A stretch of 64,000 bases of DNA from Bisporella sp. PMI_857 (taxonomy: Eukaryota > Ascomycota > Leotiomycetes > Helotiales > Helotiaceae), in assembly GCA_021307315.1 (NCBI GenBank), contig JAJSPD010000063.1:186001-250000 (forward strand), in the 5' to 3' direction. Under the pieces are notes generated by a model. The model ran no database searches. It saw only the letters and a program-made list of their open reading frames with translations, and had not been told where the DNA came from. Below are positions 1-17,902 of this stretch, in pieces; the first letter of the stretch is position 1; each line of letters opens with the position of its first letter. The position numbers and the translations under genes are program-made.

Positions 1-3000
1 CTACAAGTTGTTATACGCGATCCAGTGCAGTGGCGGCACAGTTCGTCTCTAGCTAAGCATCTCGACAGTGACCTGGGAGCCACCATGGCGCCCGGTCAAC
101 CGCTAAATGATTTTGGTCTCGTAGAGGAGGCATCGGGCAACCGATTTTTCGTGTGGAGATCACACCATAGCACCTACGATGGTTGGAGCGTAAACTTGAT
201 ATGGCAGCAGGTAACAAATATCTATCTTGACCAAGCTGTCCCGCGAGCTGTACCATATACGCGCTTCATCCAGTATATGCTGCGTGCAGACCCCGACATA
301 ACGCAGAAGTACTGGGAGCAACAACTTAGCGGCAATCCTGCAGCAGACTTCCCTCCGCTCCCCCAGGCCAACTACCACCCACGCCCACGGCAGCAGGTCT
401 CGCAGAAGATCGATTTGCGTGGACTGGGCAACAGCACAAGTGAGCTAACGATGTCTGATATTCTTAGGGCTAGCTGGGCACTCGTTCTAGCACAGCACCT
501 GAGCAATGAGGATGTTGTCTTTGCTGTTGCATTATCAGGGCGCAATGCACCCGTCTCTGACATTGAGAGCCTCATGGCGCCAACCCTCACCACTGTGCCA
601 TTGCGGGTTCATGTCGATGGTACGAAGACTGTACAGAGCTTCCTGTCAGCCATTCGAAAGCAGGGGATTGAAATGATTCCGTATGAACACACGGGACTGC
701 AAAGAATCAAACAGTTGGTTCCCGAAGCTGAGGCTGCTTTAACGCTACGGCATTTATTCATTGTGCAGCCAGCGGCAGAGAATGAGCCCGCGGTTGGCAT
801 TCCTGGAATGCGTGCGGTTCCTGTTGATATGGAAGAGTTCGACAGCTATGGATTGAATGTCGAGTGTACTTTAGGCCCCGACGCCGTTATAATCAATGCC
901 CGCTTCGATGAAAAAATCATCTCTCCTCGCCAGTTGAACCGGGTGCTGGAGCAGTTCGCCCATGTCACACAACAGCTTTGCCGCCCAGCTGTACTCGAGA
1001 AGCAAGTGAATGAGATCGAGATTATTAGTCCGACGGACATACAGCAGATAGCGAAATGGAATCAGGCGCTACCCGTTACGGTGGAACGTTGCATTCATGA
1101 ACAAGTGGAAGAGATGGCCAAGATGCAACCCGACGCCATCGCTGTGGATGCATGGGATGGCAAATTGACTTATAGTGAGCTTATGACACATGCTGCCGCG
1201 CTTGCCCATCACCTGCTCCATCTTGGGGCAGCTAAGCGTGCTGAGACTATGGTAGGCCTTTGCATGGACAAGTCAAAATGGGTGCCTGTAGCTATGCTCG
1301 CCATTCTCCAGGCTGGGGCAGTTGTGGTTCCTCTCGGAGTATCCCATCCCCTCACCCGTATCGACGGCATTCTCAAAGACACTGCCGCCGAGATTGTTCT
1401 CGTAGATGCCGGTCAAGCTGAGCGCCTGGCTGGTCTAGATAATGAGCTGCTACAGCTCGTAATAGTCGACTCACCGGTCGTGATTGCTTCTCGCGACGAA
1501 TTTTTGGCAAATTCAAAATTGGGACTCACACCAAAACATCCGTCACAAGTAGTGACTGTCCTTACCGATTCTTCACTCTTGGGCTCGCTCAATATTTCAA
1601 TTGAAACCCCACATACCGGTGTGAAGCCGCATAATGCTGCCTGGGTGATATTTACATCAGGCAGCACTGGTGTGCCAAAAGGCGTAGTCCTGGAGCACTC
1701 TGCTCTCGCAACTAGTATACAAGCGCATGGTGATAGGTTTGGTGTACGTCGTAATAGCCGGGTGATGCAATTTGCAGCTCATACATTTGATGCCGTGATT
1801 CAAGACTGCTTCACAACGTTGATCTGGGGTGGAACCATCTGCATCGCATCCGAAGATGATCGTATGAACAATCTTGCTGGCGCAATGCGATCCATGGGCG
1901 TTACATTTGTCAACCTAACCTCCACTGTAGCACGGCTGTTAAGACCATCCGACATACCCTCCTTGAAAACGATTACACTAGGTGGCGAAGCTGTTCAAGT
2001 CGACGTTGTCGAGTTATGGGCAAATCACGTCAATCTGTTAAACACCTATGGGCCATCAGAGTGTTCAATTAATTCGATGTGCAACGGACCGCTGTCGGAC
2101 CCTACACAGGCGTCAAACATCGGATACGCAATGGGAACTCGACTGTGGGTAGCTCAACCAACAAACCCGCATCAGCTAGCCCCTATCGGTGTCGCCGGAG
2201 AGCTCTTGATTGAAGGGCCTCTCTTGGCACGCGGCTATCTGAACGACAAGGAAAAAACCGCTGCCTCTTTCATCACAGACCCGGCATTCATGAATAACCC
2301 AGCACTGGGTTTATCAGCCGGTGGCCGTGTATATCGGACGGGCGACATGGTACGACAAAACGAAGACGGCTCTCTAATATATCTCGGCCGGGGTGATATG
2401 CAAGTCAAGATCCGTGGTCAACGAGTCGAAATTGGCGAAATTGAATACTGGATTAGCAAACTGCAACTAGATGTGCGGCTTGTAACTGTGGTCTTCACGG
2501 ACAACGGCAAACGAGATCAGCAAAGACTTGTGGCCATTATTGAGTTCGCTGAGAACAGCAAACACCGAACCAGTACAACGACAGCTAGTGCTATCGATCA
2601 GCCTCTCTTGCCCTCGACGAGCGATCTCCAAGCCGACTTTAGTCAGCTTCGAACGTCGTTGTTGGAGATACTTCCCGCATACATGGTCCCTAGCATTTTC
2701 GTGCCTGTGTCTAAGGTCCCTCTCAACCTATCGGGCAAGCTCGACCGGCGAGCAGCGCGCGAGATCGTCGATGCCATCGAGACCACAAAGCTGCTCAGCT
2801 ATGCCACCACCCGAGCCAAAGCGCCTCCATCTACAGAAACAGAGCGACAGCTAGTGCTCCTCTGGGGCCAGGTCCTCGGCATAGACGGCGAGGTCGGTGC
2901 GCAGGACCACTTCTTCCACATTGGAGGCGACTCAGTCGCTGCAATGCGCATAGTCACTGCCGCACGTGCTTCCCAATTATACCTGACGGTGGGCGATATC

Positions 3001-3129
3001 TTCCAGCACCCACGGCTGTCGGAGCTAGCGGAGTTGCTAGACAACCGCCAGCTGAGCGACAACTTCCTTGCGCAGGAAGTGGTTGAGCCGGCGCCGTTTG
3101 AAATGTGGAGGGAGGCGATTGGGGTGTAG
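1..3129 (+). CDS. Nonribosomal peptide synthetase, C-A-T C-terminal part (5' truncated by window)
   Basis: The reading frame is open from base 1, so the gene starts upstream and only its last module is seen. The order is the end of a condensation domain (HHSTYDG catalytic motif near 163-189), an adenylation domain (A3 core FTSGSTGVPKG near 1650-1690; YRTGD near 2330; MQVKIRGQRVEIGEIE near 2400-2450) and a thiolation domain (GGDS phosphopantetheine site near 2930). No intron is seen. The protein stops about 45 residues after the carrier domain, within what resembles a T-to-C linker (EPAPFEMW), with no thioesterase, reductase or terminal C domain. It must therefore pass its chain to another protein, most simply the C-A-T-R synthetase at 13319-17902. 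Specificity residues read by eye against GrsA are D-A-Q-N-T-G-T-I-N; I make no substrate call. Earlier modules may lie off the window. Confidence 0.93.
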   Translation, partial: LQVVIRDPVQWRHSSSLAKHLDSDLGATMAPGQPLNDFGLVEEASGNRFFVWRSHHSTYDGWSVNLIWQQVTNIYLDQAVPRAVPYTRFIQYMLRADPDITQKYWEQQLSGNPAADFPPLPQANYHPRPRQQVSQKIDLRGLGNSTSELTMSDILRASWALVLAQHLSNEDVVFAVALSGRNAPVSDIESLMAPTLTTVPLRVHVDGTKTVQSFLSAIRKQGIEMIPYEHTGLQRIKQLVPEAEAALTLRHLFIVQPAAENEPAVGIPGMRAVPVDMEEFDSYGLNVECTLGPDAVIINARFDEKIISPRQLNRVLEQFAHVTQQLCRPAVLEKQVNEIEIISPTDIQQIAKWNQALPVTVERCIHEQVEEMAKMQPDAIAVDAWDGKLTYSELMTHAAALAHHLLHLGAAKRAETMVGLCMDKSKWVPVAMLAILQAGAVVVPLGVSHPLTRIDGILKDTAAEIVLVDAGQAERLAGLDNELLQLVIVDSPVVIASRDEFLANSKLGLTPKHPSQVVTVLTDSSLLGSLNISIETPHTGVKPHNAAWVIFTSGSTGVPKGVVLEHSALATSIQAHGDRFGVRRNSRVMQFAAHTFDAVIQDCFTTLIWGGTICIASEDDRMNNLAGAMRSMGVTFVNLTSTVARLLRPSDIPSLKTITLGGEAVQVDVVELWANHVNLLNTYGPSECSINSMCNGPLSDPTQASNIGYAMGTRLWVAQPTNPHQLAPIGVAGELLIEGPLLARGYLNDKEKTAASFITDPAFMNNPALGLSAGGRVYRTGDMVRQNEDGSLIYLGRGDMQVKIRGQRVEIGEIEYWISKLQLDVRLVTVVFTDNGKRDQQRLVAIIEFAENSKHRTSTTTASAIDQPLLPSTSDLQADFSQLRTSLLEILPAYMVPSIFVPVSKVPLNLSGKLDRRAAREIVDAIETTKLLSYATTRAKAPPSTETERQLVLLWGQVLGIDGEVGAQDHFFHIGGDSVAAMRIVTAARASQLYLTVGDIFQHPRLSELAELLDNRQLSDNFLAQEVVEPAPFEMWREAIGV

Positions 3130-3687
3130 GGTGGATAAATATTCCAAGATTATAAGCCAAGATTTGAAACAGATTGCAATATTATGCTTCTAAGTGTAGT
3201 TATAGTTTAGGGGGTTATATTAGGCGCAATTACTTATACTGGCAGCGTAGAGAGAATTTGTATCAACTTAGATTCTGAAGAAGTGTTAAGAGATGAGGGA
3301 ATTTTTAGGAATTTCTTGTGATTTGTCCATATCGAAGATGCAGTATCTCAATCTAAAGGGGGATTGCTCTTTTCGTTGTCACATTAAGTAAATTGTGACA
3401 GTGAAAGCCCACCAGGGGTCTAAGCAGTAAATGTTTCCATGCCATATGGCTGAAGCATTGCTTCTCGTTGGTATTGTTATACTTGATACAATACTCTTCA
3501 CCCCATTCAAGTCTCTTAGAAATTGTGACTCTAGTAAACGTAGATGCACAAACTTAGCTTAATTGAGTGAGAGAAAAACAATAACTATCCTTTTTTTAAC
3601 TAATAATAAGCTACATTCTTTCGAAAATTCCGTTTTCTCAATCTCTATAAAGCCTCGAGCTTACACTGAAACTTTTTTTTTTTTTTT
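3130..3687. other. Convergent intergenic region
   Basis: This AT-rich 558 bp stretch lies between the 3' end of the NRPS gene and the 3' end of the ligase gene. It ends in a T tract of about 17 bases (3672-3688) next to the ligase stop codon. I see no coding potential in it; it presumably holds the two facing 3' untranslated regions. Confidence 0.6.
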
Positions 3688-5755
3688 TCAAATTACCAAG
3701 GACTTCAACTTATACTTCAATGCCTTCCCGTTATGACTCTTTGGGATCTCTGCCATGAAGGTGATATTGTTTTTCAACCAGTGCGGCTCGCTGAGTGTTG
3801 ACTCGACAAGTTTGTTGATATCGGCCTTAAGACTCTTATCGTCAAGCTCGGCCATCGATTTTGGAGAGCGCACGATGAAGGCGTATGGCCTCTCACCGGA
3901 ATCCTCGTCGGGCACTGCAATGACGGCTGCTTCATCGACGGCGGGGTGGGAGAGCAGCTGCGTTTCAATCTCTACAGGTGCGACTTGCAAGCCCTATTGG
4001 TAATTTGATTCAGCCTGCTTTCTTGTGTCATCCTGGGGTGGTTTCTTATCATACCTTGACTTTCATAATGTCTTTCTTTCTGTCAACAATGAAGAGGTGC
4101 TCGATGCCGTGCGGGTCTTTCTTGAATGTTGCTACATCCCCTGTTCGCAACCATCCGTCGGCATCAAATGATCTTTCGTTGGCTGATTCATCACCAAGAT
4201 ATCCCGCCATGATGCTCGGAGAACGCAGGAAAAGCTCTCCGGATTCACCGAGATTGTCAACGTCGGACCCATCTTCTTTCACCAATCGTGCTTCTGCCAT
4301 TGCAATGAGACTCCCGTCAGATCCGAGATAGACGTTGTGAGCGCTTGTAAATGAAATAATCACGCCGCTTTCCGTCAGTCCTGATACTTTGTTAGTCAAA
4401 CTCTGTGTAGCACATATAGCATAGCAGAAGTTTCCGAAAGTGATCCTTACCATATCCTGGGAGAACCTGCCAATCCGGTTGACATTGCTTCAGGGCTTCA
4501 GCCATCCGCGGACCGAATGATGCTGAGCCCGTGACGACGGAGTCTACAGTGGATACATCATAGATGTCAAACAAGAACGAATTATTTATTAACGCGTTGA
4601 TGATTGATGGGACCTGAAAATGATTAGCACATTGAATTAAGATAGAAGAGAAAAAAGAAAAGGGTGTCACGTTACTAGATATAATCTCTCGATCTTGTAC
4701 TTCGAGATGGACGACAGCATGTTCTGCATGTCGAAACGGGGGTGCAAAATGGTACAGTCGCCACGCCATGCCATCAAGTGCCCAAGAATCAAGCCATAGC
4801 TATGGCTTAAGGGCAAAATTCCAACGACCACTTCGGTGCGCCCCTTCTTGTAGAAGCTTTCAAAGGTTGCTGCCTGCAAAATGTTTGCAATAACATTAAA
4901 GTGGGTCAGCTTCGCAAGTTTCTAGATTAAACACGCACCGTCAGTCATAATGAGCAATAATATAGCGAGTCAATCGTGCATAGTGACAACAATGCGGCGC
5001 CTAACCTGCTTGCCTGAAGTGCCGCTTGTGGGGCATAGATATGCTACTCTATTACGGCCTTCACTCGGCTGCAATTTCAACGTATCAATTTGCTCAAGGC
5101 CTGAGCCCTCCGCGATTAGCTGACCAATGGTCTTGTAATTTTGAGTTGTCTCCTGTGTTTTCTCTAGCGGGCTGGGAAGATCCAGAAGGAAAGCCCGGAC
5201 CGATCTCTTTTTTGCAACTTGTTCAAACGTGCTGAGAAGGGGCCGGCAGGTCACCATAACTTTGCACTTTGCGAGCTCCAAATGAGCCTCGATCTCCAAT
5301 GGAGTGCTTGTTGAATGCAGAAGAAGGCATATACCTCCGAGTCGGTGGATAGCCCAACATGTGATCAGAAAGTCAACCTAGGTAAATAGTATGTCAGGTT
5401 GCTAGTAATTCCTTCCTGCGAGCAAAGAGGGAGATGCGTAGCGTTTGCTATGCTATTTTTCTAGAATCTAACGTACTGTATTGAAGCTGAAAATTCCCAC
5501 AACTTTATCCCATGGCGACCCTTCATTTGGCGACCAGCCCAATTCCTTACCCAGGCTCTTCGAAAGCGACAAGACACGGTCTTTGATCTCCTTCATATCA
5601 TATGTGGTGCCCGAGAGGGCACACACCACCGTAGGCTTATCGTCATTCCAGTCGTAGAGATCATGGTCTCGTTGCGTAACAAAATCGCCTATGAGAACAG
5701 AGTCTGGAATTGCGGTAGCAATCTGGGGAACCCATGGCGGTGCGGAGAAGATCAT
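3688..5755 (-). CDS. Acyl-adenylating enzyme (AMP-dependent acyl-CoA/acyl-AMP ligase)
   Basis: Six exons give a 563-residue ANL-superfamily ligase: 5755-5477, 5377-5006, 4921-4676, 4613-4451, 4380-4055 and 3993-3688. Every junction has GT...AG ends and keeps frame. Motifs in order are the phosphate loop [10 protein letters not shown] (about residues 208-217, split by intron 2), [17 protein letters not shown] (about 350), GWLRTGD (about 425), [17 protein letters not shown] (hinge and A10 side) and a C-terminal NGKALKYK with the likely catalytic lysine. Such enzymes activate carboxylic acids as acyl-AMP and load them on CoA or a carrier protein. Its place beside two NRPS genes suggests it supplies a fatty or aryl acyl starter for N-acylation, the role reported for the fatty-acyl-AMP ligase of the A. 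nidulans inp cluster. The substrate cannot be read from the sequence. Confidence 0.88.
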
Positions 5756-7569
5756 TGTGAGAGCGTCAGGGTCAGTAGTTCGGATAACAGGATTAGCGCA
5801 ATCTCTATTAAGTTTCTAGGTAGTGTTTTGCTTCTGTACGAGGCAAGTCCTGAATCCTCTATGCGAATATCGCTGCTGTTTGCAGTATACTTTAGTGTCT
5901 TCAAATTGAGCCTTGAGATTTTGCAGCGCATTTGGCCCTTTAATTTTTTCCAATTATAGCTAGTTTCCTTGGCGTAATCCTTTTTAAGGTTCTGCCTTTC
6001 TAGGAGGAGAGCTAAGTTCCCAGCTTGCATAACGTCGCACTTTGCCTCGATTAGAAAATAATCTTATATCATGTCTCAACATATACAACTCAGGATAAGT
6101 GGAACATGTTTTAAATAACGTACACCCGATTTAATATTAAGCTGAAAAATAGGCTCCGATTGGAATAGCTTTAAGGGAGCCAAATGATAGTTATTATTTT
6201 TATATGTTATTACATGTTTGACCCACTTATTATTCTCACTTTCCTAATCAAGTCAGTACTTAACTGACATTACAAACTTCTGAAAACCCATCTTATAGGA
6301 ATTTTTGCAATTTTTTTAAATTATAGACAGCCTAGACCCTTTACTTTGTAGGTTCCATCCCCAACTTTTTCCTAGGCGTTATTTCTTGGCGTTTTTCATG
6401 GCATTGTAATATGGTGGGTTTCTATGGTCTTGTGTCATATGGCTGTGCCATGGTAATGTTCCTTGGTGTTGATCCTTAGTTTTCCTTAGTTTTCCTTAGT
6501 TTGTTCCTTAGCTTGTTCCTTAGCTTGTTCCTTAGTGCTGTTCCTTGGTGCTGTTCCTTGGTGCTGTTCCTTGGCGAGGTCCCTTGTTTGCAGTTTCCAT
6601 GCAGTAGCCCTGCAGTGTTCTACAGCGAGCCCCGGCCTTACCCTAGGATCTGAGCAGCTTGAAAGTAAGTGCATTCACTATATTCGGATAAATACCAAAA
6701 AATAAAATATGAAAAAGCTTAATGAATTATCTTGGCTATATTGGTGCCTTAGGCTACAGATGTCTTTACTACAACTACTAAGCAAACACGTCATGTGATG
6801 ATCACAAAAAAGAAATATTCTTTATATCATATGGCTAAAAAGGATACTCTCATAAGGAGTTACGCGGTCTTCCCCAGTGATACTTGTATATAGTATGTCA
6901 ATTGATTTGATTTCATATAATCAAACTAAGTTAATTTAACCTTACAATTTTGCTAAATAATAATTAATTAATCAAACACTGTTTATCAATGTTGTAGAAT
7001 ATGTCTCTATAGTAGTTATTTATCTCTCTTTAAATAGCTTTCTCACAAAATAGCCGTTATAGTATATTAAGTCAAGTGCTGAAAGGCTAGTGTAATAAGG
7101 CATTTGTGTTCTAACTGGCTGTTTGTCCATTCCTAGACTGAGGTCCGAACATAGTACTTTATCAGCATGAGCTTTGAATGAAAAAGTTCATAAAGACTCT
7201 TGCCGTATCTAGAGGCCCACTGATAATGAAGGTTTAAATCAGCATATTCTATTTACATGGATAGGAGTTTTATGCGAAGCTCAAGTGTCAATCAACAATG
7301 AGTAACAAGCTATCTTATGTACTATGTAATACACCTTCCTCATTCCCACTTGAACTGACTATAGATTAGGCGTTCTTACCAACGGTCTACCTATAGAATT
7401 TAGCTTTGCCCACTGGACCAAGAACTAGAATTTGGCAAGCCGAGAATTGTGCTCTTGTTACAGTCATTTCCTGCCTCCATAATTATCTCAGGGTATTCAG
7501 CTATACCAAGAATATCTACAGTCGAATTTTAGCAAAGAGCAGTATATCTTATAGCCGGTGCTAGTAATA
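5756..7569. other. AT-rich non-coding region
   Basis: About 1.8 kb of AT-rich sequence lies between the ligase start and the MITE at 7570. Its first part must contain the ligase promoter. ORFs here are short and resemble nothing I know; a 92-residue minus-strand ORF directly upstream of the ligase has no recognisable domain. Apart from the short tandem repeat at 6474-6576 I see no feature. Base composition suggests old repeat-rich or mutated DNA. Confidence 0.5.
6474..6576. repeat. Imperfect tandem repeat (TTCCTTAG / TGTTCCTTGG units)
   Basis: Roughly eight to ten diverging copies of an 8-13 bp unit (TTTTCCTTAG, TTGTTCCTTAGC, TGCTGTTCCTTGG) follow each other. Read on the minus strand they give a KEQ-rich peptide, but no gene model supports translation. 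This is a minisatellite in the AT-rich spacer. Confidence 0.7.
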
Positions 7570-7742
7570 CAGTCAAACCTGGTTATATCGGAACGCTCGG
7601 TGCCAAACCAACCTTCCGATATATTGAGGTTTCCGATATAACGAGGTCCATTATAGCTACCTAAAGCTCGGCGGATCCAAGGTTCATTCCGATATACAGA
7701 GGTTTCCGATATAACGAGTTCCGATATAACCAGGTTTGACTG
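7570..7742. mobile_element. MITE with perfect 25-bp terminal inverted repeats and TA target duplication
   Basis: The 173 bp element starts CAGTCAAACCTGGTTATATC and ends with the exact reverse complement; the match covers 25 bp on each side (7570-7594 and 7718-7742). TA dinucleotides flank it at 7568-7569 and 7743-7744, the duplication expected of Tc1/mariner-pogo (Fot1-like) elements. The interior carries two related copies of a TTCCGATAT...GAGGTTTCCGATATAACGAG block. It has no coding capacity, so it would be a non-autonomous element mobilised in trans. It lies 431 bp beyond the 3' end of the oxygenase gene. Confidence 0.9.
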
Positions 7743-8172
7743 TACTGCTTTTCTAGAGTTGGCAAGAACGAGCTCTGTACAACGCCTGTTTTTAGTTTGG
7801 CACAAAGATCCGGACTGGTGTTTATGTTACTTTTACTTTAAATGGTGTAAGCATGGACTATGGTAGGTACTAGCACATACGAACTTCTCGAGAGTAAATT
7901 ATCAACGAAAAGTATTGTTGCATGTGGACTAGAGAGCGCAAGAGTGGCTTTAGGGTCAGCGGATCTATCTGATCTGGACTTTCAGGCAAATTTTAAAATG
8001 AAAGAGCAAATGGTTTGGAGTTTCTCTGTATATAAAATTGTAGCTAATGATTAAGCTATCATATTGTAAATGCATCTTGGGTGGAGCGAAACCTCAGGTG
8101 AGTAGAACTGTTTTCGCATCAACTTTACCTAATAATGCTAATAAGCAGAATGTATTAGATCGAAAAACCAGC
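7743..8172. other. Spacer between MITE and oxygenase gene
   Basis: About 430 bp of AT-rich DNA with no recognisable gene. It probably contains the oxygenase 3' untranslated region. Confidence 0.5.
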
Positions 8173-9278
8173 CTATAGGGCAACGGCGATTCGGTCTCCC
8201 TTTTCCATTCCTCCAGTGAGGATATTTTCGCTGGACTGTTCTGCATGTGAAGCTCGGAAATGGTCGAACTTGTCATTATGCCACTCATTGGCTGTAACGA
8301 GTCGACCGTTTGAGTCACGATACACAGTGTCATCCGCAGGCCGTAAAAAGAACGCAATTGAGTGACGGTGCTCAAGCTGGCGATTTGTGAAAGGTAGGAC
8401 ACGGTGAACAGCAGATAATAACTGGTTGCCGGTTAAGAAACGGAGAGAGTCTCCAACATTAATAATGGCGTGGTTCTTCTTTGGAGCAACGTAGAGCCAC
8501 TGGTTTTGTTGTGGTGAGAGGACTTGGAGGCCCCACTGTTGACACAAAAGGAAGGTGAAGGTGCCGATATCAGTGTGTTTGTTATGACCGATCCCCTTCA
8601 ATGCTTCTTCTTCGGTTTGGCGTGGATAACGAAACATGGACATTGTACTCGTGGTCGGCTGAGTTGGGTCGTGGAAGGATTCTAGAGACCCCGAAAGTGA
8701 CTTTCCCAAAACGCTGGTAAGGCGACGTAGAAGCATAATAGTCAGGCTATGGGCACCAGTAACAATGGATTCGAAAAGTTTTATGTTATCATTTAAGGCG
8801 GGTGCAAGATTTGGTGAACGTGATTTGCATTCAGTATATGAGATCTAGATAATTCTTTGTAAGTCTCGCAACTGGAGCCGGAATAGGATTAAGTACCTTT
8901 AGGCTTTCATAATGATCCAAGGAGTTTTCTGCCACCCCAGCAGATGTACCACAGGGTTCGTAACTTTCCATTATTAGCGATTGATAAATAACATATAATT
9001 ACCAATGGTTTATACCCGTGAGTATCGCTGTTCCGCGAATCTTTAAGCTTAACATCCAGTGGCTGGTCAAAATACCAATTCATGAATGCAAGCACATCTT
9101 CCCAATCTTGAGTCAGGTACGAAGTCTCCTCTGCTGATAGGTCCAGATAGAAGAACCCATATGTCTTGCATGCAAGCAGTAGCCTGTCTACCTCAAGCTT
9201 GTCATTCTGTATTAACTTGCCGGCATTCAAAATCAGAAGTGGTGCTGTTTCTCGCACAAGCTCTGATGTAATATCCAT
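8173..9278 (-). CDS. 2-oxoglutarate/Fe(II)-dependent dioxygenase (isopenicillin N synthase-like family)
   Basis: Three exons (9278-9016, 8963-8897, 8844-8173) encode 333 residues, normal for the family. The N-terminal DIOX_N-like part ends in a THGYEPCGTSAG segment that is formed only when intron 1 is removed at GTATAA. The C-terminal double-stranded beta-helix shows the iron triad: H200 and D202 in HTDIGTF, H257 in SAVHRVLP. R270/S272 in RHS is the likely 2-oxoglutarate-binding pair. Such enzymes hydroxylate, desaturate or cyclise small molecules. Position within the NRPS cluster and intact motifs suggest a tailoring step on an amino acid or the peptide, for example a beta-hydroxylation; that role is inference. 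It is divergent from the FSH hydrolase gene. Confidence 0.9.
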
Positions 9279-10222
9279 ACTGATAGTGAGAGAATCTCAG
9301 ACTAGTTGACGCAAACGAAGGTTCGACAACACAAGAGCTCAAACAGAGCGAAAGATAATGCAAAATCAACTTCTTTGTGTCTCGAGCTTTACTGGCCGAA
9401 ATATCAGCAGGACTGGTGAAAATTTTGAACGAAACTATAGAAATAGTGAAGATCTTGGTAATTATTGAGGAACAATATTTCTAGAGATATATGAGATAAC
9501 TCGACAGAGACTTCGGCCTCGACGGCCTATCAGAAAATTTAGGCTGCCTAAATTAATCACATTTGACTGCATGACCGAGGATTGCAGTTGTAGCAAGCCC
9601 CGGTGTTCCTTTACAATCCCTGTTTTCTCCCATGAACGTTGATTGCTGAGGTGCACCAACATATAACAGATACAAGGAATTGCATTCATGCTTGATGGAG
9701 GCGTTTGGCTTGCTAGGGTAAGGGTCGTGCTTTACCGCCGAGAGCCGTACTCCACGGATTGTGAACTAAGAGGTTTGCATTTATTACGATTTGAGGGGAG
9801 GAGTGGAGTTTGATGTACAGGGCAGCAGTAGATCAAGCTCTGTCCACACCCAATAGTTCTTGGCAATAAAAATATCACGTGCAAATTGCGCCTATTGTAA
9901 CACGAAGAGTCTAATCTGGTTAGTGTATGTAAATTCATAAACTCGGAGTGGCTTAAAATATCGGTCCTCGTACATCCCTGGCTCTCCCTCCCTTGCATAG
10001 CGTGTTTCCTTTGACTGTTCCTTTGAAGCTGAGCTAATATGGCGCTATTGTACCGCATTTCAGACAATTTTTATCTTGTGATGGATTACACAGAGCAAGG
10101 ATTAAGCCAATGTGGCGTCGATTAATCAACTGCTTTTTTTGTGCAAAATTCACTTATTTATACATACAGATAAATACTATCCTAACTTAAGATAAGATGC
10201 TGTCTTCATTTGTATTGCAGAG
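9279..10222. promoter_or_regulatory. Divergent intergenic region (oxygenase / FSH hydrolase)
   Basis: This 944 bp spacer separates two divergently transcribed cluster genes and must hold both promoters. I see no convincing palindromic regulator site and no coding sequence. Confidence 0.45.
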
Positions 10223-11440
10223 ATGAAAGTTTTAGTCCTGCATGGCTACACCCAGAGTGGTCCAGGCTTTCAAAAGACAATTAAAAAGTTAGAGTCACGT
10301 CTCGAAAGAGAATTCCGAGATGACTCAATATCATTCTATTTTCCAACTGGCCCAATCCCGCTGAGACCGAGCCAGATGATAGCCGCCAGTGCATCACACC
10401 AGGAAGCAGAAAACGCTCCATCAGCACAGCAAAACCCGTACGAGAAAGCTGACCCAGACAACATTGACTGTTACGCTTGGTTCAGATTGCACGATCATGA
10501 CGACCCCCCATTTGGATTTACCCTTAGTCTAGAGATGCTCGCGGAGGTTCTCAATATTCACGGGCCATTCGACGGAATTATTGGATTTTCACAAGGAGGC
10601 CTTATGGCTATTATGGTCGCCTCTCTGTTGGAAGGAGAGCTGCGCCAGGAGGCATTTGCGCAAGCGCAGAAAAAATCAGCTGATATCTTCCCGTTCCCCG
10701 ACTGTTACAAAAACATACAGCACCCACCGTTCAAGTTTGGGATAACCTATGGGGCATTGATGGGAGTTGGGGAAAAATACGCGCCATTCTATGATTGCCC
10801 ACGCATCCAAACACCTTTCTGTCAATTTTCTGGTCTTTGGGATCCAGTGGTGAGTATGGAAATGAAATTGGCTGTCGAGAGGGCACAAATAGGCGGTGGG
10901 AGATCGCTCCAGGTCACTCATCCGGGTGCCCACTCAGTCTGTACCCAGACGAAGTATCTCGATATTTTGGTCGACTTCATCAAAGGTGTACAAAATCATG
11001 CCATGCTTCCAACATCGATAGAGGGGAGCATCAGTAGCACGGTGGGAGAATTGTGCCTAACTTCGACGACGTTAAGCTCAGATGAGTCTCAGTCATCCAG
11101 GAATGCGAGCCGACCGAGGAGGAAAGGCTTGAGGAGGATGTCAAGAAATAAAGTTAAAATGGCGCGCTTCGCGCCACAAGTTGACGAGCCTCACCACCGA
11201 AGCCCTGATCCCGGCTCTAATTTAACAAGCATATATGCCTCTTCCACAGATGAGGAAGAAAACTTGATCGAGAAACAACAGCGGTTGAGCATTGCTCTAC
11301 AGAATGTCTTGACAGCATGGACACAGGAGAAGGAGTTCCACAGGTCTCTTTCATCGCAGGACCATATTCAAGAAATGGCTGAGAGAATTCTAAGAACGAT
11401 TATGCAAGACGGGTTACCTAACATCCGCGGAGTGACGTAA
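10223..11440 (+). CDS. FSH1-type serine hydrolase with C-terminal extension
   Basis: This intronless 405-residue alpha/beta hydrolase starts MKVLVLHGYTQSG, the typical FSH1 opening. The nucleophile elbow GFSQGG lies at about residues 121-126. The acid is likely the Asp in SGLWDPVVS (about 207) and the base the His in HPGAHSVC (about 236). FSH1 relatives in fungal clusters act as esterases or stand-alone thioesterases that release or proofread chains. Because the partner NRPS already ends in a reductase, an editing or hydrolytic side role is a reasonable inference. The core is about 260 residues; the last 145 or so form a Ser-rich then Arg/Lys-rich tail (RPRRKGLRRMSRNK) not expected in the family. 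It is convergent with the proteasome gene, 207 bp away. Confidence 0.88.
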   Translation: MKVLVLHGYTQSGPGFQKTIKKLESRLEREFRDDSISFYFPTGPIPLRPSQMIAASASHQEAENAPSAQQNPYEKADPDNIDCYAWFRLHDHDDPPFGFTLSLEMLAEVLNIHGPFDGIIGFSQGGLMAIMVASLLEGELRQEAFAQAQKKSADIFPFPDCYKNIQHPPFKFGITYGALMGVGEKYAPFYDCPRIQTPFCQFSGLWDPVVSMEMKLAVERAQIGGGRSLQVTHPGAHSVCTQTKYLDILVDFIKGVQNHAMLPTSIEGSISSTVGELCLTSTTLSSDESQSSRNASRPRRKGLRRMSRNKVKMARFAPQVDEPHHRSPDPGSNLTSIYASSTDEEENLIEKQQRLSIALQNVLTAWTQEKEFHRSLSSQDHIQEMAERILRTIMQDGLPNIRGVT

Positions 11441-11647
11441 GAAAGGCTTAGCGTGTCTTGAGCGCCATTCTGTTTTGTATATATATGATGTTACGAGATT
11501 TGAGATGTTGGGTACTTGTGAGAGATCATCAGAGCAAAGACATGAGGCATTTATGGAGTTTTCCTGTTGAGGACTGCCACCCATTTAAGAATGAATTTTG
11601 GTGCATTTCTCAAATATTTCAATGCCTTATATATAAACGCTAACTGT

Positions 11648-12456
11648 TTAATCCTTCTTTAATGGTACAATGGTCTCTTTTATTCCATCCTTCGATACTA
11701 GCAGCATCTGCAGCCCATCTCCAACCTCAATATGTCTCTCAGTTGCATTATTAAATGCATCTTTCACAAAATCAATCACTGTATCTTTAGAGAACACTTC
11801 CCGAGGCCGTTCTTGCAATTCGGCTCCGGCTAATGTGCTTGGAATATACTGATTATTGAGCTCGACCTGACTATCCAAGAATGGCATAATCAAATTCGCA
11901 GCAGCTCCAGCAACTCTACAAGCGCTTCTTTCGTAGCATCCTGCTGGGTCATAACTAAACACCGCTCCTTTCCCATCTTTGTCTAACCCGCCAAGAATAG
12001 CCTGCACTTGATATGGAAAGAATCGCTTCTGATATAGAAGCGTTGAAAGGCGATGTGCACAAGCTTCCACAGTAATCGGCTTTCCATGCTTAAACTTGTA
12101 CATATTGACCATAGCGTCAAGACGTTCTTTGAGATCCTTGCCATCGGCACCAAAGCCTACCACCGATAGAACTATCCGGTCGTCATCGCCAATGCGGAAC
12201 ACTTTTGGTTCTAGTCGGGAATTGATGGAATAGCCACTTGTGGAACGAGTATCGCCAGCAATAATCACAAAGTCCCCGCTGCTTATACCTAGGATTGTAC
12301 CTCCATTGTCGGTATATCTATAGAAAAGTGGTTAGATAGAGGCATTAAATATGTAAAAGATACTGACGGGTTGAACGAATGTTGTTTTTCGCTTGAGAAT
12401 GACTCCTGCGGAAGAGGCACCACCGAAGTTCCATAAGGGAGAAGTGAGTGGCTCAT
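11648..12456 (-). CDS. Proteasome 20S subunit beta-6 (Pre7/PSMB1-type), probable self-resistance paralog
   Basis: Two exons (12456-12368, 12317-11648) give a complete 252-residue protein. The splice joins SEKQHSFNP to YTDNGGTILGI, the conserved beta-6 start. Further hallmarks are AGDTRSTSGYSINSR, KRFFPYQV, GLDKDGKGAVFSYDP and ATERHIEVGDGLQ, all matching Pre7 rather than other beta subunits. Beta-6 is non-proteolytic but borders the beta-5 active site. The gene lies between the FSH hydrolase and the reductase-ending NRPS and shares a divergent promoter region with the latter. That is unusual for a housekeeping proteasome gene but is the arrangement seen with inpE in the A. nidulans fellutamide B cluster. 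The conserved DPVGSY loop reads DPAGCY here (residues 153-158). The ATG at 12456 is the first suitable start; the frame upstream has no ATG. A second, ordinary beta-6 gene should exist elsewhere. Confidence 0.93.
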
Positions 12457-13318
12457 ATCGGTAATGCGGCGGCGTTGCAAGCTTTGGAAAACCAGATTTA
12501 ATGTTACCAGATTCAATGGCAATAGAAGAATGTGTGAGGTGCGCCTACAGATTCTATGATGGGTATATTCGCAATGCTAGGCTGGAGGGCTGCGTAAGCA
12601 GAGCGATATGCCGGTTTATGGGGCCTCATAAGGCATCGAAGCATGAGTTTGTTCCTCCTTCCTAATTGGACCACCTAAATGGTAATTTTGTGTAACTTGT
12701 CCATAGTCTCTTCCTTCGGACTTTATCTTTAGCGTCTTCCTTCGCGTTGTTGCTTATGGCAGCTTATTGCATGGGAGCCCGGGTGTGGCGAGACAAGGTT
12801 GTAGGGGTAATCCCGAACCCTGTCTTAATACCTTACTTCCGACCATCCGTTGTAGTGCCAATCCCCCCCAAAAAATTAACTTGGTAATTGAGATTAAATA
12901 ACTCCATATATAGAGGTTAATAGGTGGGCTATATGGGGAGCCATTGAGATATATAGTATGAACATTTTAAGCTAACAGGCTTCATAATTATTTTACGTAG
13001 GCCCTCTTTTTTACAAAAGGCCAGGGGGGATAGATATTAAGCCACTTCCTATGTAGGGCATAACTCTGTTATAAGGTTGTCTGACTCCTTAGCTACCCTT
13101 AAAGGAGGTTGCCGCACTAAATATCTTTGCTGTAATAGACACAAGCCAGATATAAATAACATTTTTCTAATCGTTATTCGTTGTATGGGAGTTTTCACTC
13201 CAGTCTTAAGGCAGGAGAGTTGGCAACCAAAATCCTGATTGATTTTATGGGTGACTGTTGTCCCTGACACACTCTTTCACTTACCATTTTGGTCTTGATT
13301 ACCTTTTGAGATTCTCAA
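12457..13318. promoter_or_regulatory. Divergent promoter region shared by proteasome beta-6 and NRPS genes
   Basis: 862 bp separate the two start codons, which point away from each other. This arrangement would allow co-regulation of the synthetase with the candidate resistance subunit. The middle is AT-rich and contains a C tract near 12865. No coding sequence or clear regulator palindrome is visible. Confidence 0.5.
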
Positions 13319-16300
13319 ATGGTTCCGTCACGACAGTACTCACCACCGAGAAAGGCTATGGCGCCTCCAGAGAATACAGCTCTAGCTAACGCTATTGCTA
13401 ATTTTGCGCAACAATGCAATGTTCGCTCAAGCCAAATTGAAGATATATACCCTTGCACACCTTTACAGCATGGCATGTTTGTGCTTTCAGCCGCGTCGGA
13501 AGGAGCGTACATTGCTCAGCATGTTTTTAAGCTACAAGATAGCATCGACACAGAGTTGATGAAGAATGCTTGTAACATGGTGATTCAAAGAAATGCAATC
13601 TTCCGTACACGAATCGTTGCAGTGGAAACTCGGGCCCTGCAGGTAGTATTGAAAGATTGGCTGCCGGAATGGACTGAATTTGTTGATCTCCCAACTTATC
13701 TTACAACCGACAAACAAATAGCAATGGAATATGGAGATCCACTGTTACGCCTGGGTATCTCAAAGACTCATTTGGTCTGGACAGCTCATCACAGCATATA
13801 TGATGGCTATTCGATTGACCTCATGCTTGAGGATATTGCAGCAGCCTATACACAAAGGGCTTTACCTGTTCGCCCACCTTACAGGAACTTTGTCAAATAC
13901 CTCCAGCAGCAACATGAAAAGGCAAAATCCAAATCTTTCTGGGAATCTGTACTTTCAGCCAAAGAAGTTCCTCCGTTTCCCACCGTACATCCACCCTACC
14001 AGCCACGACCGAACGAAACTATCAAACACTATTCGCAATCAGTAATGACTGTCTCCAGCGAAGTGACTACCGCAACTCTCGTTCAGGCGGCATGGGCTCT
14101 CGTTTTGTCAAGCCATCTCAATTCTTCGACTGTTTCTTTTGGTACTACCATGAGTGGGCGGAATTCTGACATTATTGGCATTGAGAGCATTATGGGACCC
14201 ACCATTGCCACAGTTCCTGTATGTCTTGAGATTGACTATGGACAGTCCGCAGTACAGTATTTACGGGTTATGCAGAAACTCCTTACGGAGATGATTCCTC
14301 ATCTCCACCTTGGGCTCCAAAATATCAAGGAAATTGGCCCAGCGGCTGCAGAAGCTTGCGCATTTCAGAATTTACTAGTCGTTCACCCTGCCCAACAGGA
14401 CAATATCCAGCCTACTTATAGAAAATTATTCGTAGGCACGGAAGAAAAGATTGAAGCCGACTTCCTCGACTATTCTCTGACCGTACAGTGCTCTCTAGGC
14501 AATAATGGGATACTGAAAGCCGCTGCCTCGTTCGACAGCACTGTTATCGATGCGCCACGGGTGCAGCGACTTCTCTTCCAGCTTGAGCATGTTGTTCGTC
14601 AACTAGGATCAAGTGACACAAGGAGAAAGTTGAACGAGATTGATCTCTTAAGCCCCAGTGACATCAATCAGATTCAAGCATGGAATGGAAAACCCCCAAA
14701 ACCTTTTGGACTCCCTCTAGATATGATCAACAAACACTTTTTGGATCAACCTGAAGCCATAGCGATCTGTGCCGGTGACGGAGAAATAACTTATTCAAAA
14801 TTAGACGCGCTGTCTTCGCAGCTGGCTAGCTATTTGGTCTCCGAGCATGGAATCGGCCCTGAATCCATTGTGCCAGTGTGTTATGAGAGGTCTCTCTGGA
14901 TGGTTGTTGCCGTTATCGCTACGATGAAAACGGGTGCGGCGTTCACATTGCTTGACCCCAGCTACCCTGTGCAGCGCCTGGAGAAAATTATTGAACTCAC
15001 GGACGCAAAGGTCGTTCTAGTATCCAGAGCATGTCGTGGCATGTTCAATGGGGCCTTGACTAAGTTTGTGGAATTCAAAGAAACAGTCCTGGAATCAAGT
15101 AATTCTGTAGATTCCGCATCCACCTCAACGACTATAGGTAGCCCGTTATGCATAAAAGAGCCATCTATCGACAATGCAATGTATGTAGTTTTTACGTCTG
15201 GCTCGACCGGCCAGCCAAAAGGTGTTGTGATTACTTTCGGATCCTACTTCGCAGGAGCTATGGCTCACATACCTGTTTATGATCTTGGGCCACAGTCACG
15301 GGTTCTAGCATTTGCATCACCAGCATTTGATCTCTGTCTCCAAGAGATTGTGTCGACGTTGATGGCTGGTGGCTGTCTCTGCGTTCCCACCGAGGATGAT
15401 CGTTTTGGAGATATCGCCAGCGTCATTCAGTCAATGAATGTTAATATGGCTTCATTCACGCCTTCATTCGCCAGACAGATCTCTCCCGATAGCGTACCCT
15501 CTCTGAAAAAAATGATATTTGTCGGTGAAGCACTTCCCAAAGATCAAAGAGATACATGGGCAGACAAACTGTGGCTCATGAACAGTTATGGGCCATCTGA
15601 GTGCTCAGTCATCAGTACAATTAACCCACGCGTGACGAAGTCTACCTACCCTACAAACATTGGACCACTTCTCACGGGATCTGCATGGATAGTTCGTCCT
15701 GATGATGAATCCAGACTTGTGCCAATAGGAGCCACTGGGGAGTTGCTTATCGAAGGTCCACTTTTGGGTCGAGGCTATCTCAACGATCCTGCGAAGACCG
15801 CTGCCAGTTTTATCGAGACTTCGCTTCTCGGTGTTGATTCGGGAAATGGAACGCGGCGGTTGTATAAGACTGGTGATCTGGTTCGGTATGATCCCACGGA
15901 CGGCAGCATTATTTACGAGGGCCGGAAAGACATGCAAGTCAAGATCCGCGGTCAACGCGTAGAGATTGGCGAGATTGAACATCACCTTGGAAAGACCTTT
16001 CCCAAGGCATCTGGAGCGGCAGTGGAGCTATTGAAGCATGCTAATAATACTGTAGCAGAGCTCGTTGCTTTCATTTTCTGCGATGGAATGTGGGATGAAG
16101 CATCCGAGCATAAGCCTCACCAACTGTTACCGTTACTCGCCGACTCAAATATCAACAACATGGCGGATATCAAGTCACATCTCGCTAACGTCTTGCCCCG
16201 CCACATGGTTCCTAGTCGATTTCACTTGGTGCCAAAACGTCCTATGCAACCAGCGGGCAAACTAGATCGGAAGAAGTTGCGACAAGAGCTTCTTGAGCCT

Positions 16301-17902
16301 ACTGGTTATCATTTTGAGCTGGAAAGATCTGATATCGAGATATCGCTCCTCAGCCAAGATAACGAGATAGCTTTACGGCTCAGCGAGAAGATTGTTAAAT
16401 TAGTGACAGTGAAGGATACAGATGGAGCTATTGAGCTTTCCGGGAGGGATTTGACACTGTCCACACTGGGTTTAGACTCCATCCAGCTCATCAGCCTACT
16501 CACTTACATCAGGAAAGAGTACGATGTCAAGTTGTCGATTGCAATTTTATATAATAACAATCTCACTATTTCAGGGTTGGCCAAAATCATTGACGACTAT
16601 CAGTCTGACGTAGTACCACAGCATAGCGAACAGACGATCGACCTTTCCAAACAAATCCAAGATTTATACGACAGTTTCCTAGCTGCACCATTAATACAAA
16701 ATGAACTCGCGTCAAAGACCATCTTCCTCACCGGGGCGACCGGCTACTTGGGCTCGCAGATATTACGCCAGCTGCTTACTGACACACTGATAAAGAAGGT
16801 CATTGTACACGTGCGAGCGGCCACCTCTGAGGAAGCTCTTGATCGCGTGGTCCACGCTGCGTCGCTTGGAAAATGGTGGTCAGCGGCGTACCTTTCTCGG
16901 ATTGAATGTTGGCCGGGAGATTTACGAGCTCATAATCTTGGCCTCCTACCAAATCAATGGAGCCAGTTAACTGGAAATTGCTATCCCGGTGAACAGATAA
17001 ACCATATCATACATAACGGAGCAACGGTCCAGTGGCAGGCGCCATATTCTGCGCTCAAGGCAGCCAACGTCGACTCGACATTGGCATTACTATCTGCTGT
17101 TCGTCAGTGGCCTAGCCCCGGTAGTTTTACATACGTCTCCGGAGGATTGAAACGAACTCCAGACATGGATTTGGATTCGTTTGCCGCCAGTCTGCAAGCT
17201 TCAAATGGGTACAATCAGACCAAGTTTGTTTCCGAACAACTTACCGCGAGGTTTGCTACTGGTAATCCAAAGCACAACGTCTCGATAGTTCGACCAGGTT
17301 TAATCATCGGCACGGAGGTTGAGGGCATCCCAAATACAGATGACTTCTTATGGAGACTAGTCCAGGTATGCGTCAGCATTGGTGGCTACCCGGCAGAGAA
17401 GCAAGATTACTGGCTATCTGTTACTAGTGTTGAAGAGGTTGCAACATCTATCATCGATTCAACTCTTAGCCCTGGCCAGCAAACTTCGAAGGTCTGGGAT
17501 ATCGATACGGGCCTAGTCGTGGGTGAATTTTGGGCCATCGTTGGGGAGGAGCTGGGTGGAAGATTGAAACCTATGAACGGCAAAGAATGGATTATCGCTG
17601 TCAAAAGCTTTCTCGAAAATGCGGGAGAGAATCATGCTTTCCAGCCGCTAATGGCTATGTTCCAAGAACCTACTTTCAGTCTAGGGAGTCCCGCGTCAGT
17701 ATCAGCCAAAAGCGATCCCAGCACCTTCCCAGCTCTCCGGAAGAATCTGCGGACATTGCTGAGTACTGGCTACCTCTGGGTCGAGGAACAAAGCAAGGAT
17801 TCTCGATTTCCCCGTGGTCTCGTGCCAGAATCTGGTACTTTGTTTAGTAGGTCTAGTATGATGAAAGCAGGACACGGCCTGCTTACAAAGGTGGTAGGCT
17901 GA
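13319..17902 (+). CDS. Nonribosomal peptide synthetase, single module C-A-T-R with terminal reductase
   Basis: One uninterrupted 1527-residue frame. After a short leader comes a condensation domain (SQIEDIYPCTPLQHGMF near residue 40; HHSIYDGYS near 156), then an adenylation domain (FTSGSTGQPKG near 625; NSYGPSECS near 755; YKTGD near 848; QVKIRGQRVEIGEIE near 872), a thiolation domain (LGLDSIQL near 1049) and a thioester reductase (GATGYLGS near 1138; YNQTK active-site motif near 1297). The R domain would release the finished chain as an aldehyde, or an alcohol after a second reduction, using NAD(P)H. The leader plus C domain looks like the continuation of the T-C linker at the end of the other NRPS, so the two probably work in series. 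Specificity residues by eye are D-L-Q-S-I-V-S-V-I; I do not assign a substrate. Confidence 0.95.
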   Translation: MVPSRQYSPPRKAMAPPENTALANAIANFAQQCNVRSSQIEDIYPCTPLQHGMFVLSAASEGAYIAQHVFKLQDSIDTELMKNACNMVIQRNAIFRTRIVAVETRALQVVLKDWLPEWTEFVDLPTYLTTDKQIAMEYGDPLLRLGISKTHLVWTAHHSIYDGYSIDLMLEDIAAAYTQRALPVRPPYRNFVKYLQQQHEKAKSKSFWESVLSAKEVPPFPTVHPPYQPRPNETIKHYSQSVMTVSSEVTTATLVQAAWALVLSSHLNSSTVSFGTTMSGRNSDIIGIESIMGPTIATVPVCLEIDYGQSAVQYLRVMQKLLTEMIPHLHLGLQNIKEIGPAAAEACAFQNLLVVHPAQQDNIQPTYRKLFVGTEEKIEADFLDYSLTVQCSLGNNGILKAAASFDSTVIDAPRVQRLLFQLEHVVRQLGSSDTRRKLNEIDLLSPSDINQIQAWNGKPPKPFGLPLDMINKHFLDQPEAIAICAGDGEITYSKLDALSSQLASYLVSEHGIGPESIVPVCYERSLWMVVAVIATMKTGAAFTLLDPSYPVQRLEKIIELTDAKVVLVSRACRGMFNGALTKFVEFKETVLESSNSVDSASTSTTIGSPLCIKEPSIDNAMYVVFTSGSTGQPKGVVITFGSYFAGAMAHIPVYDLGPQSRVLAFASPAFDLCLQEIVSTLMAGGCLCVPTEDDRFGDIASVIQSMNVNMASFTPSFARQISPDSVPSLKKMIFVGEALPKDQRDTWADKLWLMNSYGPSECSVISTINPRVTKSTYPTNIGPLLTGSAWIVRPDDESRLVPIGATGELLIEGPLLGRGYLNDPAKTAASFIETSLLGVDSGNGTRRLYKTGDLVRYDPTDGSIIYEGRKDMQVKIRGQRVEIGEIEHHLGKTFPKASGAAVELLKHANNTVAELVAFIFCDGMWDEASEHKPHQLLPLLADSNINNMADIKSHLANVLPRHMVPSRFHLVPKRPMQPAGKLDRKKLRQELLEPTGYHFELERSDIEISLLSQDNEIALRLSEKIVKLVTVKDTDGAIELSGRDLTLSTLGLDSIQLISLLTYIRKEYDVKLSIAILYNNNLTISGLAKIIDDYQSDVVPQHSEQTIDLSKQIQDLYDSFLAAPLIQNELASKTIFLTGATGYLGSQILRQLLTDTLIKKVIVHVRAATSEEALDRVVHAASLGKWWSAAYLSRIECWPGDLRAHNLGLLPNQWSQLTGNCYPGEQINHIIHNGATVQWQAPYSALKAANVDSTLALLSAVRQWPSPGSFTYVSGGLKRTPDMDLDSFAASLQASNGYNQTKFVSEQLTARFATGNPKHNVSIVRPGLIIGTEVEGIPNTDDFLWRLVQVCVSIGGYPAEKQDYWLSVTSVEEVATSIIDSTLSPGQQTSKVWDIDTGLVVGEFWAIVGEELGGRLKPMNGKEWIIAVKSFLENAGENHAFQPLMAMFQEPTFSLGSPASVSAKSDPSTFPALRKNLRTLLSTGYLWVEEQSKDSRFPRGLVPESGTLFSRSSMMKAGHGLLTKVVG

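What the first reader, a model, noticed from the sequence alone, without database searches (positions are those of the whole stretch)
1..17902. Candidate proteasome-inhibitor (lipopeptide aldehyde) gene cluster with a built-in proteasome subunit
Seen: NRPS C-A-T, acyl ligase, 2OG oxygenase, FSH hydrolase, a complete proteasome beta-6 gene and NRPS C-A-T-R within 18 kb. Known: in the A. nidulans inp cluster a proteasome subunit gene (inpE) protects the producer of fellutamide B, an acylated peptide aldehyde made by NRPSs with an acyl-activating enzyme. Inferred: this cluster makes an N-acyl peptide aldehyde or alcohol that blocks the proteasome. The 2OG oxygenase would be an extra tailoring step, so the product may be a new member of the class.
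Basis: partly seen in the sequence, partly recalled or inferred. Interest (0 to 1): 0.92.

Follow-up and report, generated by a model that had tools for sequence, protein, structure and literature searches.

The report
Fellutamide-type cluster with spare proteasome subunit
A fungus of the genus Bisporella carries a gene cluster, already reported in print, that is predicted to make a fellutamide-like drug blocking the proteasome, and the cluster's spare proteasome subunit, changed at a residue matching one that the drug's fatty tail touches in yeast, likely protects the producer.

Summary
The window lies in Bisporella sp. PMI_857 (Leotiomycetes), and the genes are the right-hand part of a fellutamide (inp)-type cluster. 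The part outside the window adds an MFS transporter, a C2H2 regulator and the rest of a T-C-A-T-C-A-T synthetase. But PMC10734572 already reports a complete fellutamide cluster in this strain, so the main finding is known.

Added here: the cluster beta6 belongs to a distinct clade (18 of 149 beta6 proteins compared; the 5 named members are from Leotiomycetes and lichen fungi). A review of the yeast structure puts fellutamide B's tail against beta6 Pro95, Tyr96, Pro115 and Val116. The clade has Ala at Val116 in 15 of 18 (0 of 131 outside) and Gln, Met or Ser after Tyr96 in 18 of 18 (0 of 131). This is a concrete, testable resistance mechanism. Against it: no significant concentration of changes in the pocket segments (p = 0.15), and A. 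nidulans inpE could not be retrieved.

The extra 2OG oxygenase is intact and would fit a fellutamide A-type product (beta-hydroxylated Gln); untested.

The parts
1..3129 (+). 3' part (C-A-T) of a 2361-aa NRPS with layout T-C-A-T-C-A-T, inpB-like; the gene starts at C245:181983, 4018 bases left of the window
   Evidence: Pfam PF00550/PF00668/PF00501; spliced model with one 61-nt intron; A. nidulans inpB is 2327 aa (PMC10734572)
3688..5755 (-). acyl-AMP ligase, 563 aa, 5 introns (inpC-like)
   Evidence: own splice model; PF00501 E 3.2e-52 and PF13193 E 6.5e-17
7563..7749 (.). MITE-like element with 32-nt terminal inverted repeats, 94% complementary; an insertion inside the cluster, probably not functional for it
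   Evidence: the repeat finder
8173..9278 (-). 2OG-Fe(II) oxygenase, 333 aa, two 52-nt GT-AG introns (9015-8964, 8896-8845); candidate tailoring hydroxylase
   Evidence: (PF03171 E 3.9e-15, PF14226 E 1.4e-7)
10223..11440 (+). FSH1-family serine hydrolase, 405 aa (inpF-like in role)
   Evidence: PF03959 E 1.4e-37
11648..12456 (-). proteasome beta6 paralogue, 252 aa, one intron (inpE-like, likely self-resistance gene)
13319..17902 (+). NRPS C-A-T-R, 1527 aa (inpA-like), predicted reductive release
   Evidence: Pfam; homologues in Clarireedia, Lecanora and Aspergillus; motifs

Best explanation
This is a fellutamide (inp)-type biosynthetic gene cluster of the fungus Bisporella sp. PMI_857 that is predicted to make an N-acyl tripeptide aldehyde, and its second beta6 gene likely keeps the producer's proteasome working by weakening the groove that holds the inhibitor's fatty tail. 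Steps. (1) The acyl-AMP ligase would load a hydroxy fatty acid on the first carrier domain of the T-C-A-T-C-A-T synthetase (inferred from domain order and the inp model). (2) That synthetase would add two residues, by analogy Asn and Gln (inferred). (3) The C-A-T-R synthetase would add a hydrophobic residue, by analogy Leu, and release the chain reductively as an aldehyde (domains shown, product inferred). (4) The FSH hydrolase would help release or transfer and the MFS protein would export (inferred). (5) The aldehyde would bind Thr1 of beta5, as published for fellutamide B, with its tail against beta6. (6) The cluster beta6, assembled in place of the housekeeping one, has Ala at the tail-contact residue Val116 and Gln next to the contact residue Tyr96, so tail binding and affinity at beta5 would fall (substitutions shown, effect inferred). 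(7) The 2OG oxygenase may hydroxylate the Gln, as in fellutamide A (weakest step). The confidence below is for a fellutamide-type cluster with a self-resistance beta6; for the groove step (6) alone I put about 0.6, for step (7) about 0.35.
For: Gene classes equal the inp list in PMC10734572 and the regulator type equals scpR (C2H2, PMC8395729, passages). The genome has 15 proteasome-domain loci by my grouping of 24 matches; among the 25 best pairs printed in an all-against-all comparison, the only one above 37% identity over more than 70 residues is window beta6 and C1:1100 kb beta6, so beta6 appears to be the one subunit that is doubled. The locus that I assign to beta5 has ordinary pocket residues in its first exon (assignment and residue list recalled). 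Window and C1 contig lengths equal those of the Bisporella sp. PMI_857 proteins P0001 and P0098. In 149 beta6 proteins (all that two searches listed, of 917 and 1509 hits) the 18 lacking Tyr at P0001 position 133 are one clade: FastTree support 0.992, 0.991 with the two pocket segments removed, IQ-TREE UFboot 96-100 (18 members plus 41 of 131 others). Fellutamide B's tail groove is Pro95, Tyr96, Pro115, Val116 of yeast beta6 (PMC13180746, section read), which maps by the alignment to P0001 P131, Y132, P154, A155; the housekeeping beta6 P0098 has P, Y, P, V there. Ala at 155: 15 of 18 against 0 of 131; not Tyr at 133: 18 of 18 against 0 of 131; all 18 have Ala at 155 or Cys at 157. The equivalent Val contacts inhibitors in human (Val127, PMC5700161, passages) and Plasmodium (Val155, PMC10721928, passages), and a beta6 mutation there gives resistance to a beta5 inhibitor. 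In Clarireedia jacksonii and Lecanora helva the clade beta6 and the C-A-T-R NRPS are listed with longest contigs of equal length (418197; 271442).
Against: No product, expression or resistance was measured. Changed invariant sites are not significantly concentrated in the two pocket segments (3 of 21 inside, 3 of 65 outside, p = 0.15), and as a whole these segments are more alike between window and housekeeping beta6 (80.6%) than the rest (64.1%), so the argument rests on single contact sites named in the literature. Three of 18 clade members keep Val at 155, and Tyr96 itself is unchanged in the window. No A. nidulans inpE, the gene with tested resistance, was recognised among the listed hits, so the signature is untested there. 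The module 3 code differs from the commonest Aspergillus one at 4 of 10 positions, so the third residue may not be Leu.
Confidence: 0.85

Rival explanations
1. Fellutamide-type cluster, but resistance comes from another beta6 property (expression level, assembly, the acidic and surface changes) or from export, and the groove changes are drift in a relaxed paralogue.
For: The clade evolves faster over the protein outside the segments (mean root-to-tip 0.54 against 0.38); other invariant sites outside the segments also changed (38, 91, 161); segment enrichment p = 0.15; the segments as a whole are more conserved than the rest.
Against: Position 133 is never Tyr in 18 of 18 and 155 is Ala in 15 of 18 although both are invariant in 131 of 131 others; one is a published tail contact and the other adjoins one.
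Confidence: 0.3
2. The cluster makes a different proteasome inhibitor, an acyl tripeptide with other residues or an alcohol end, with the 2OG oxygenase as a real extra tailoring step. (This overlaps with the best explanation and differs in the product.)
For: Adenylation codes read by motif, DVSNVGSIIK, DAQNTGTINK and DLQSIVSVIK, the third differing from DLYSAVAVVK (8 of the 9 named Aspergillus or Penicillium rows) at 4 of 10; intact 2OG gene with no counterpart in the inp gene list; fellutamide A has beta-hydroxy-Gln where B has Gln (PMC10608792, passages).
Against: Same NRPS domain set and same kind of resistance subunit as the fellutamide clusters; codes in fungi predict residues poorly (recalled).
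Confidence: 0.4
3. The beta6 gene next to the NRPS genes is chance, a spare housekeeping subunit unrelated to the product.
For: Extra beta6 copies outside predicted clusters are reported in three Aspergillus species, though they could be cluster prediction errors (PMC6517689, passages).
Against: Two other fungi have clade beta6 and C-A-T-R NRPS listed with contigs of equal length; published fellutamide clusters carry a beta6; here it shares a divergent intergenic region with the C-A-T-R gene (models).
Confidence: 0.03

Closest known systems
Aspergillus nidulans inp (fellutamide B) cluster, inpA-inpF and scpR
   Same: Two NRPSs (one of 2361 aa here, 2327 aa for inpB), acyl-AMP ligase, transporter, C2H2 regulator, serine hydrolase against esterase/lipase, beta6 copy with another beta6 elsewhere
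   Different: An intact 2OG oxygenase gene that is not in the inp list; C-A-T-R protein only 44-47% identical to those of the eight named Aspergillus species with a protein of like length and layout; gene order differs from the one I recall; direct comparison with A. nidulans proteins was not made
Fellutamide cluster of Bisporella sp. PMI857, reported in PMC10734572 citing Lan et al. 2020
   Different: The section read gives no gene-by-gene account for Bisporella, and no word of the main text begins with oxygenase; its supplements were not read (none allowed) and Lan et al. is not held
Clusters inferred in Clarireedia jacksonii and Lecanora helva
   Same: C-A-T-R NRPS 62% and 53% identical and beta6 of the same clade, listed with contigs of equal length
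Plasmodium falciparum beta6 A117D resistance
   Same: A change in beta6 lowers the effect of an inhibitor of the beta5 pocket (PMC10721928, passages)
   Different: A point mutation at another residue of the parasite's own beta6, not a cluster-borne paralogue

Membership tests
Fellutamide (inp) biosynthetic gene clusters | Two NRPS genes, one ending in a reductase domain (the reductase end of inpA is recalled; Aspergillus homologues show PF07993) | tested here: met
   T-C-A-T-C-A-T and C-A-T-R by Pfam and motifs
[quoted passage not shown]
   AMP-binding plus AMP-binding_C, 563 aa; fatty-acid specificity not tested
Fellutamide (inp) biosynthetic gene clusters | Transporter gene (inpD) | tested here: met
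   MFS_1, E 1.7e-30, at C245:180423-178242
Fellutamide (inp) biosynthetic gene clusters | Esterase/lipase gene (inpF) | tested here: inconclusive
   A serine hydrolase (FSH1) is present; whether it is the inpF homologue was not tested, as no inpF sequence was at hand
Fellutamide (inp) biosynthetic gene clusters | C2H2 regulator (scpR) | tested here: met
   zf-C2H2 match E 4.1e-7; scpR is C2H2 (PMC8395729); homology to scpR itself not tested
Fellutamide (inp) biosynthetic gene clusters | Proteasome beta6 copy in the cluster and a second one elsewhere | tested here: met
Fellutamide (inp) biosynthetic gene clusters | Sequence homology of the NRPS to those of known fellutamide clusters | tested here: met
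   C-A-T-R 47% identical over 96% to that of A. recurvatus, a species with a reported fellutamide-family cluster; that this protein lies in that cluster was not checked
Fellutamide (inp) biosynthetic gene clusters | Makes a fellutamide; beta6 copy gives resistance | not testable with these tools
   No chemistry or growth data
inpE-type resistance beta6 | Common ancestry with A. nidulans inpE | tested here: inconclusive
   No protein recognisable as Aspergillus inpE among the 120 listed of 917 and of 1509 hits; the listings are cut off

The most novel reading that the evidence does not exclude
Cluster-borne beta6 is an old, separate proteasome lineage shared by Leotiomycetes and lichen-forming fungi, and it gives self-resistance by dismantling the lipid-tail groove on the non-catalytic neighbour of the target (Val116 to Ala or Ser118 to Cys, and Tyr97 to Gln or Met) while leaving beta5 untouched; in Bisporella the 2OG oxygenase makes the product a fellutamide A-type beta-hydroxyglutamine aldehyde, giving a candidate gene for that hydroxylation.
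Probability: 0.35. Interest if true: 0.65.

Novelty: already known. Interest (0 to 1): 0.45.

Why it matters
Fellutamide B is a nanomolar inhibitor of the beta5 site whose selectivity comes from a tail that grips the neighbouring beta6 (PMC13180746, section read). If the producer escapes by changing that groove, the resistance gene is a natural experiment on beta6-assisted binding, and the substitution pattern becomes a marker to tell true resistance copies from ordinary beta6 duplicates in genome mining. The 2OG gene is a candidate for the hydroxylation of fellutamide A, for which I found no enzyme named in my searches.

Tried and rejected
Housekeeping-only reading: rejected, a second beta6 exists. 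Chance neighbourhood: rejected, see rivals. Frame problem in the 2OG gene: my first model skipped about 20 residues of a 2OG region through one 158-nt intron; two 52-nt GT-AG introns, chosen by eye, give an intact 333-aa protein, so it is not a broken gene. Enrichment of changed sites in the pocket segments as a whole: not significant, p = 0.15. Shared promoter motif: words such as AAGGAACA looked enriched, but 7 of its 10 copies sit in one tandem repeat at 6456-6590, so dropped. Aspergillus inpE through a profile of 17 clade members: none recognised among the 120 listed. Print searches that could have shown the beta6 groove idea or the 2OG role showed neither in the listings (titles, starts of abstracts) or in the passages and sections read, but Yeh et al. 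2016, Hines et al. 2008 and Lan et al. 2020 are not held, so either could be in print there. Structure prediction was not used.

Full report
What is there. The window is C245:186001-250000 of a 55.6-Mb genome. The cluster beta6 is deposited as P0001 of Bisporella sp. PMI_857 on a contig of 263,749 bases, the length of C245, and the other beta6 as P0098 of the same strain on a contig of 2,026,417 bases, the length of C1. Reading leftwards, the first NRPS is a 2361-aa T-C-A-T-C-A-T enzyme with one intron, followed further left by an MFS transporter and a C2H2 zinc-finger gene. Left of these, C245:167-176 kb is AT-rich, with only two (overlapping) open frames of 120 aa or more in the 10 kb of L015. 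The cluster thus spans about C245:177,183 to window position 17,902, some 27 kb, with eight genes. Gene models come from a small splice finder of my own and from splice sites chosen by eye; the beta6 model equals P0001 exactly.

Is it the known fellutamide cluster? PMC10734572 (section 12 read) lists the A. nidulans genes as two NRPSs, a fatty-acyl-AMP ligase, a transporter, a regulator, a beta6 homologue and an esterase or lipase, gives inpB as 2327 aa, and states that Bisporella sp. PMI857 has a complete cluster, earlier noted by Lan et al. 2020 (not held). PMC8395729 (passages) gives scpR as a C2H2 factor. These classes are met here, with the esterase/lipase represented by an FSH1 serine hydrolase. 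The C-A-T-R protein is 62% identical to one of Clarireedia jacksonii, 53% to one of Lecanora helva and 44-47% to those of eight named Aspergillus species of like length and layout, among them A. recurvatus, for which PMC10734572 reports a fellutamide-family cluster. I therefore file it as that cluster. The A. nidulans proteins themselves were not compared.

Is beta6 doubled, and only beta6? PF00227 gives 24 matches that I group into 15 loci; six carry the alpha N-terminal domain (seven alpha genes are expected in a eukaryote, so one was probably missed). In an all-against-all comparison of the loci (25 best pairs printed) the only pair above 37% identity over more than 70 residues is window beta6 and C1:1100418-1101107; two shorter matches of 53-63 residues at 54-55% join alpha-type loci. 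The locus I assign to beta5 (L024, C1:1214.7 kb; assignment by a recalled motif, the only hit of that scan in 14 loci) has ordinary residues in the part of the pocket read from its first exon (residue numbers recalled).

What distinguishes the cluster beta6. Two searches listed 149 distinct proteins out of 917 and 1509 hits; all 149 were aligned. At P0001 position 133, 131 have Tyr, 12 Gln, 5 Met and 1 Ser. The 18 without Tyr form one clade: support 0.992 in FastTree, 0.991 after removing positions 124-138 and 145-160, UFboot 96-100 in IQ-TREE on the 18 plus 41 of the 131 others, again without those segments. In C. jacksonii and L. helva the beta6 and the C-A-T-R NRPS are listed with longest contigs of equal length, which suggests linkage but does not show distance.

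How resistance likely works. PMC13180746 (a review; section 3.4.4 read), on the yeast structure 3D29, says that fellutamide B's aldehyde bonds to Thr1, that its aliphatic tail lies in a groove of beta6 Pro95, Tyr96, Pro115 and Val116, and that beta1 and beta2, where the tail lies differently, are inhibited only at micromolar level against 9.4 nM for beta5. By the alignment these are P131, Y132, P154 and A155 in P0001 (I matched the only Pro-Tyr and Pro-Val pairs of that stretch). Val116 is Ala in 15 of 18 clade members and Val in 131 of 131 others; the residue after Tyr96 is Gln, Met or Ser in 18 of 18 and Tyr in 131 of 131; the residue two after Val116 is Cys in 8 of 18 (window included) and Ser in 131 of 131; all 18 have the Ala or the Cys. 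The equivalents of Val116 contact inhibitors in the human immunoproteasome (Val127, with Ser129; PMC5700161, passages) and in Plasmodium (Val155; PMC10721928, passages; equivalences read by me from the residues named there). Against this, sites invariant elsewhere and changed in the clade are not significantly concentrated in the two segments (3 of 21 against 3 of 65, p = 0.15); the segments as a whole are more alike between window and housekeeping beta6 (80.6%) than the rest (64.1%), and the clade evolves faster overall; three members keep Val116; and Tyr96 itself is kept in the window. I hold the groove mechanism likely (about 0.6) and the broader claim of a fellutamide-type cluster with a self-resistance beta6 very likely.

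The 2OG oxygenase. It is intact, with two 52-nt GT-AG introns and both Pfam halves; solved relatives are general, led by thebaine 6-O-demethylase, with fungal TropC and SpoC (the last two known to me as fungal) among the first eleven of 45, so the substrate cannot be read from homology. Fellutamide A is 3-hydroxydodecanoyl-Asn-(threo-beta-hydroxy-Gln)-leucinal and fellutamide B has plain Gln (PMC10608792, passages). A hydroxylase acting on Gln would fit; probability about 0.35. Its presence in other clusters was not tested.

Product. The three adenylation codes, read by motif with positions recalled from PheA, are DVSNVGSIIK, DAQNTGTINK and DLQSIVSVIK. Of the 17 homologues aligned for the third, 9 are named Aspergillus or Penicillium; 8 of these 9 read DLYSAVAVVK and the ninth differs from it at one position. 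No epimerase domain of the condensation type was among the matches listed (PF01370, named Epimerase, is the reductase region). The residues Asn, Gln and Leu are by analogy only.

Noticed in passing
window 7563-7749: MITE-like element with 32-nt terminal inverted repeats (94% complementary) between the ligase and the 2OG gene.
   Followed up: partly
window 6456-6590: Short tandem repeat of a TTCCTTAG/TTCCTTGG-type unit upstream of the ligase gene.
   Followed up: partly
C245:166001-176000 (L015): AT-rich stretch with only two overlapping open frames of 120 aa or more, left of the cluster; perhaps degenerate transposon land that marks the cluster border.
   Followed up: no
P0002/P0122 and P0015/P0123: Clarireedia jacksonii and Lecanora helva appear to hold fellutamide-type clusters; neither genus is named in the main text of PMC10734572.
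   Followed up: partly
P0125 and P0158: In two lichen-fungus records (Xanthocarpia lactea, Flavoplaca citrina) the C-A-T-R NRPS carries an MFS domain in the same predicted protein, perhaps a gene-calling fusion of inpA- and inpD-like genes.
   Followed up: no
No Aspergillus inpE was recognised among the listed hits, even of the clade profile, although inpA-like NRPSs of eight named Aspergillus species are listed; Aspergillus inpE may stem from a separate duplication or have diverged far.
   Followed up: no
window 26092-59412: Right of the cluster 10 of the 19 other open frames of 200 aa or more were scanned: RIIa, BCAS2, M20 peptidase, GH76 and a Zn2Cys6 regulator; five had no match. No PKS was among them, although PMC10734572 notes a PKS within 70 kb of the Bisporella beta6.
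   Followed up: partly
window 12457-13318 and 9279-10222: beta6/C-A-T-R NRPS and 2OG/FSH hydrolase are divergent pairs that share intergenic regions of 862 and 944 bases.
   Followed up: no
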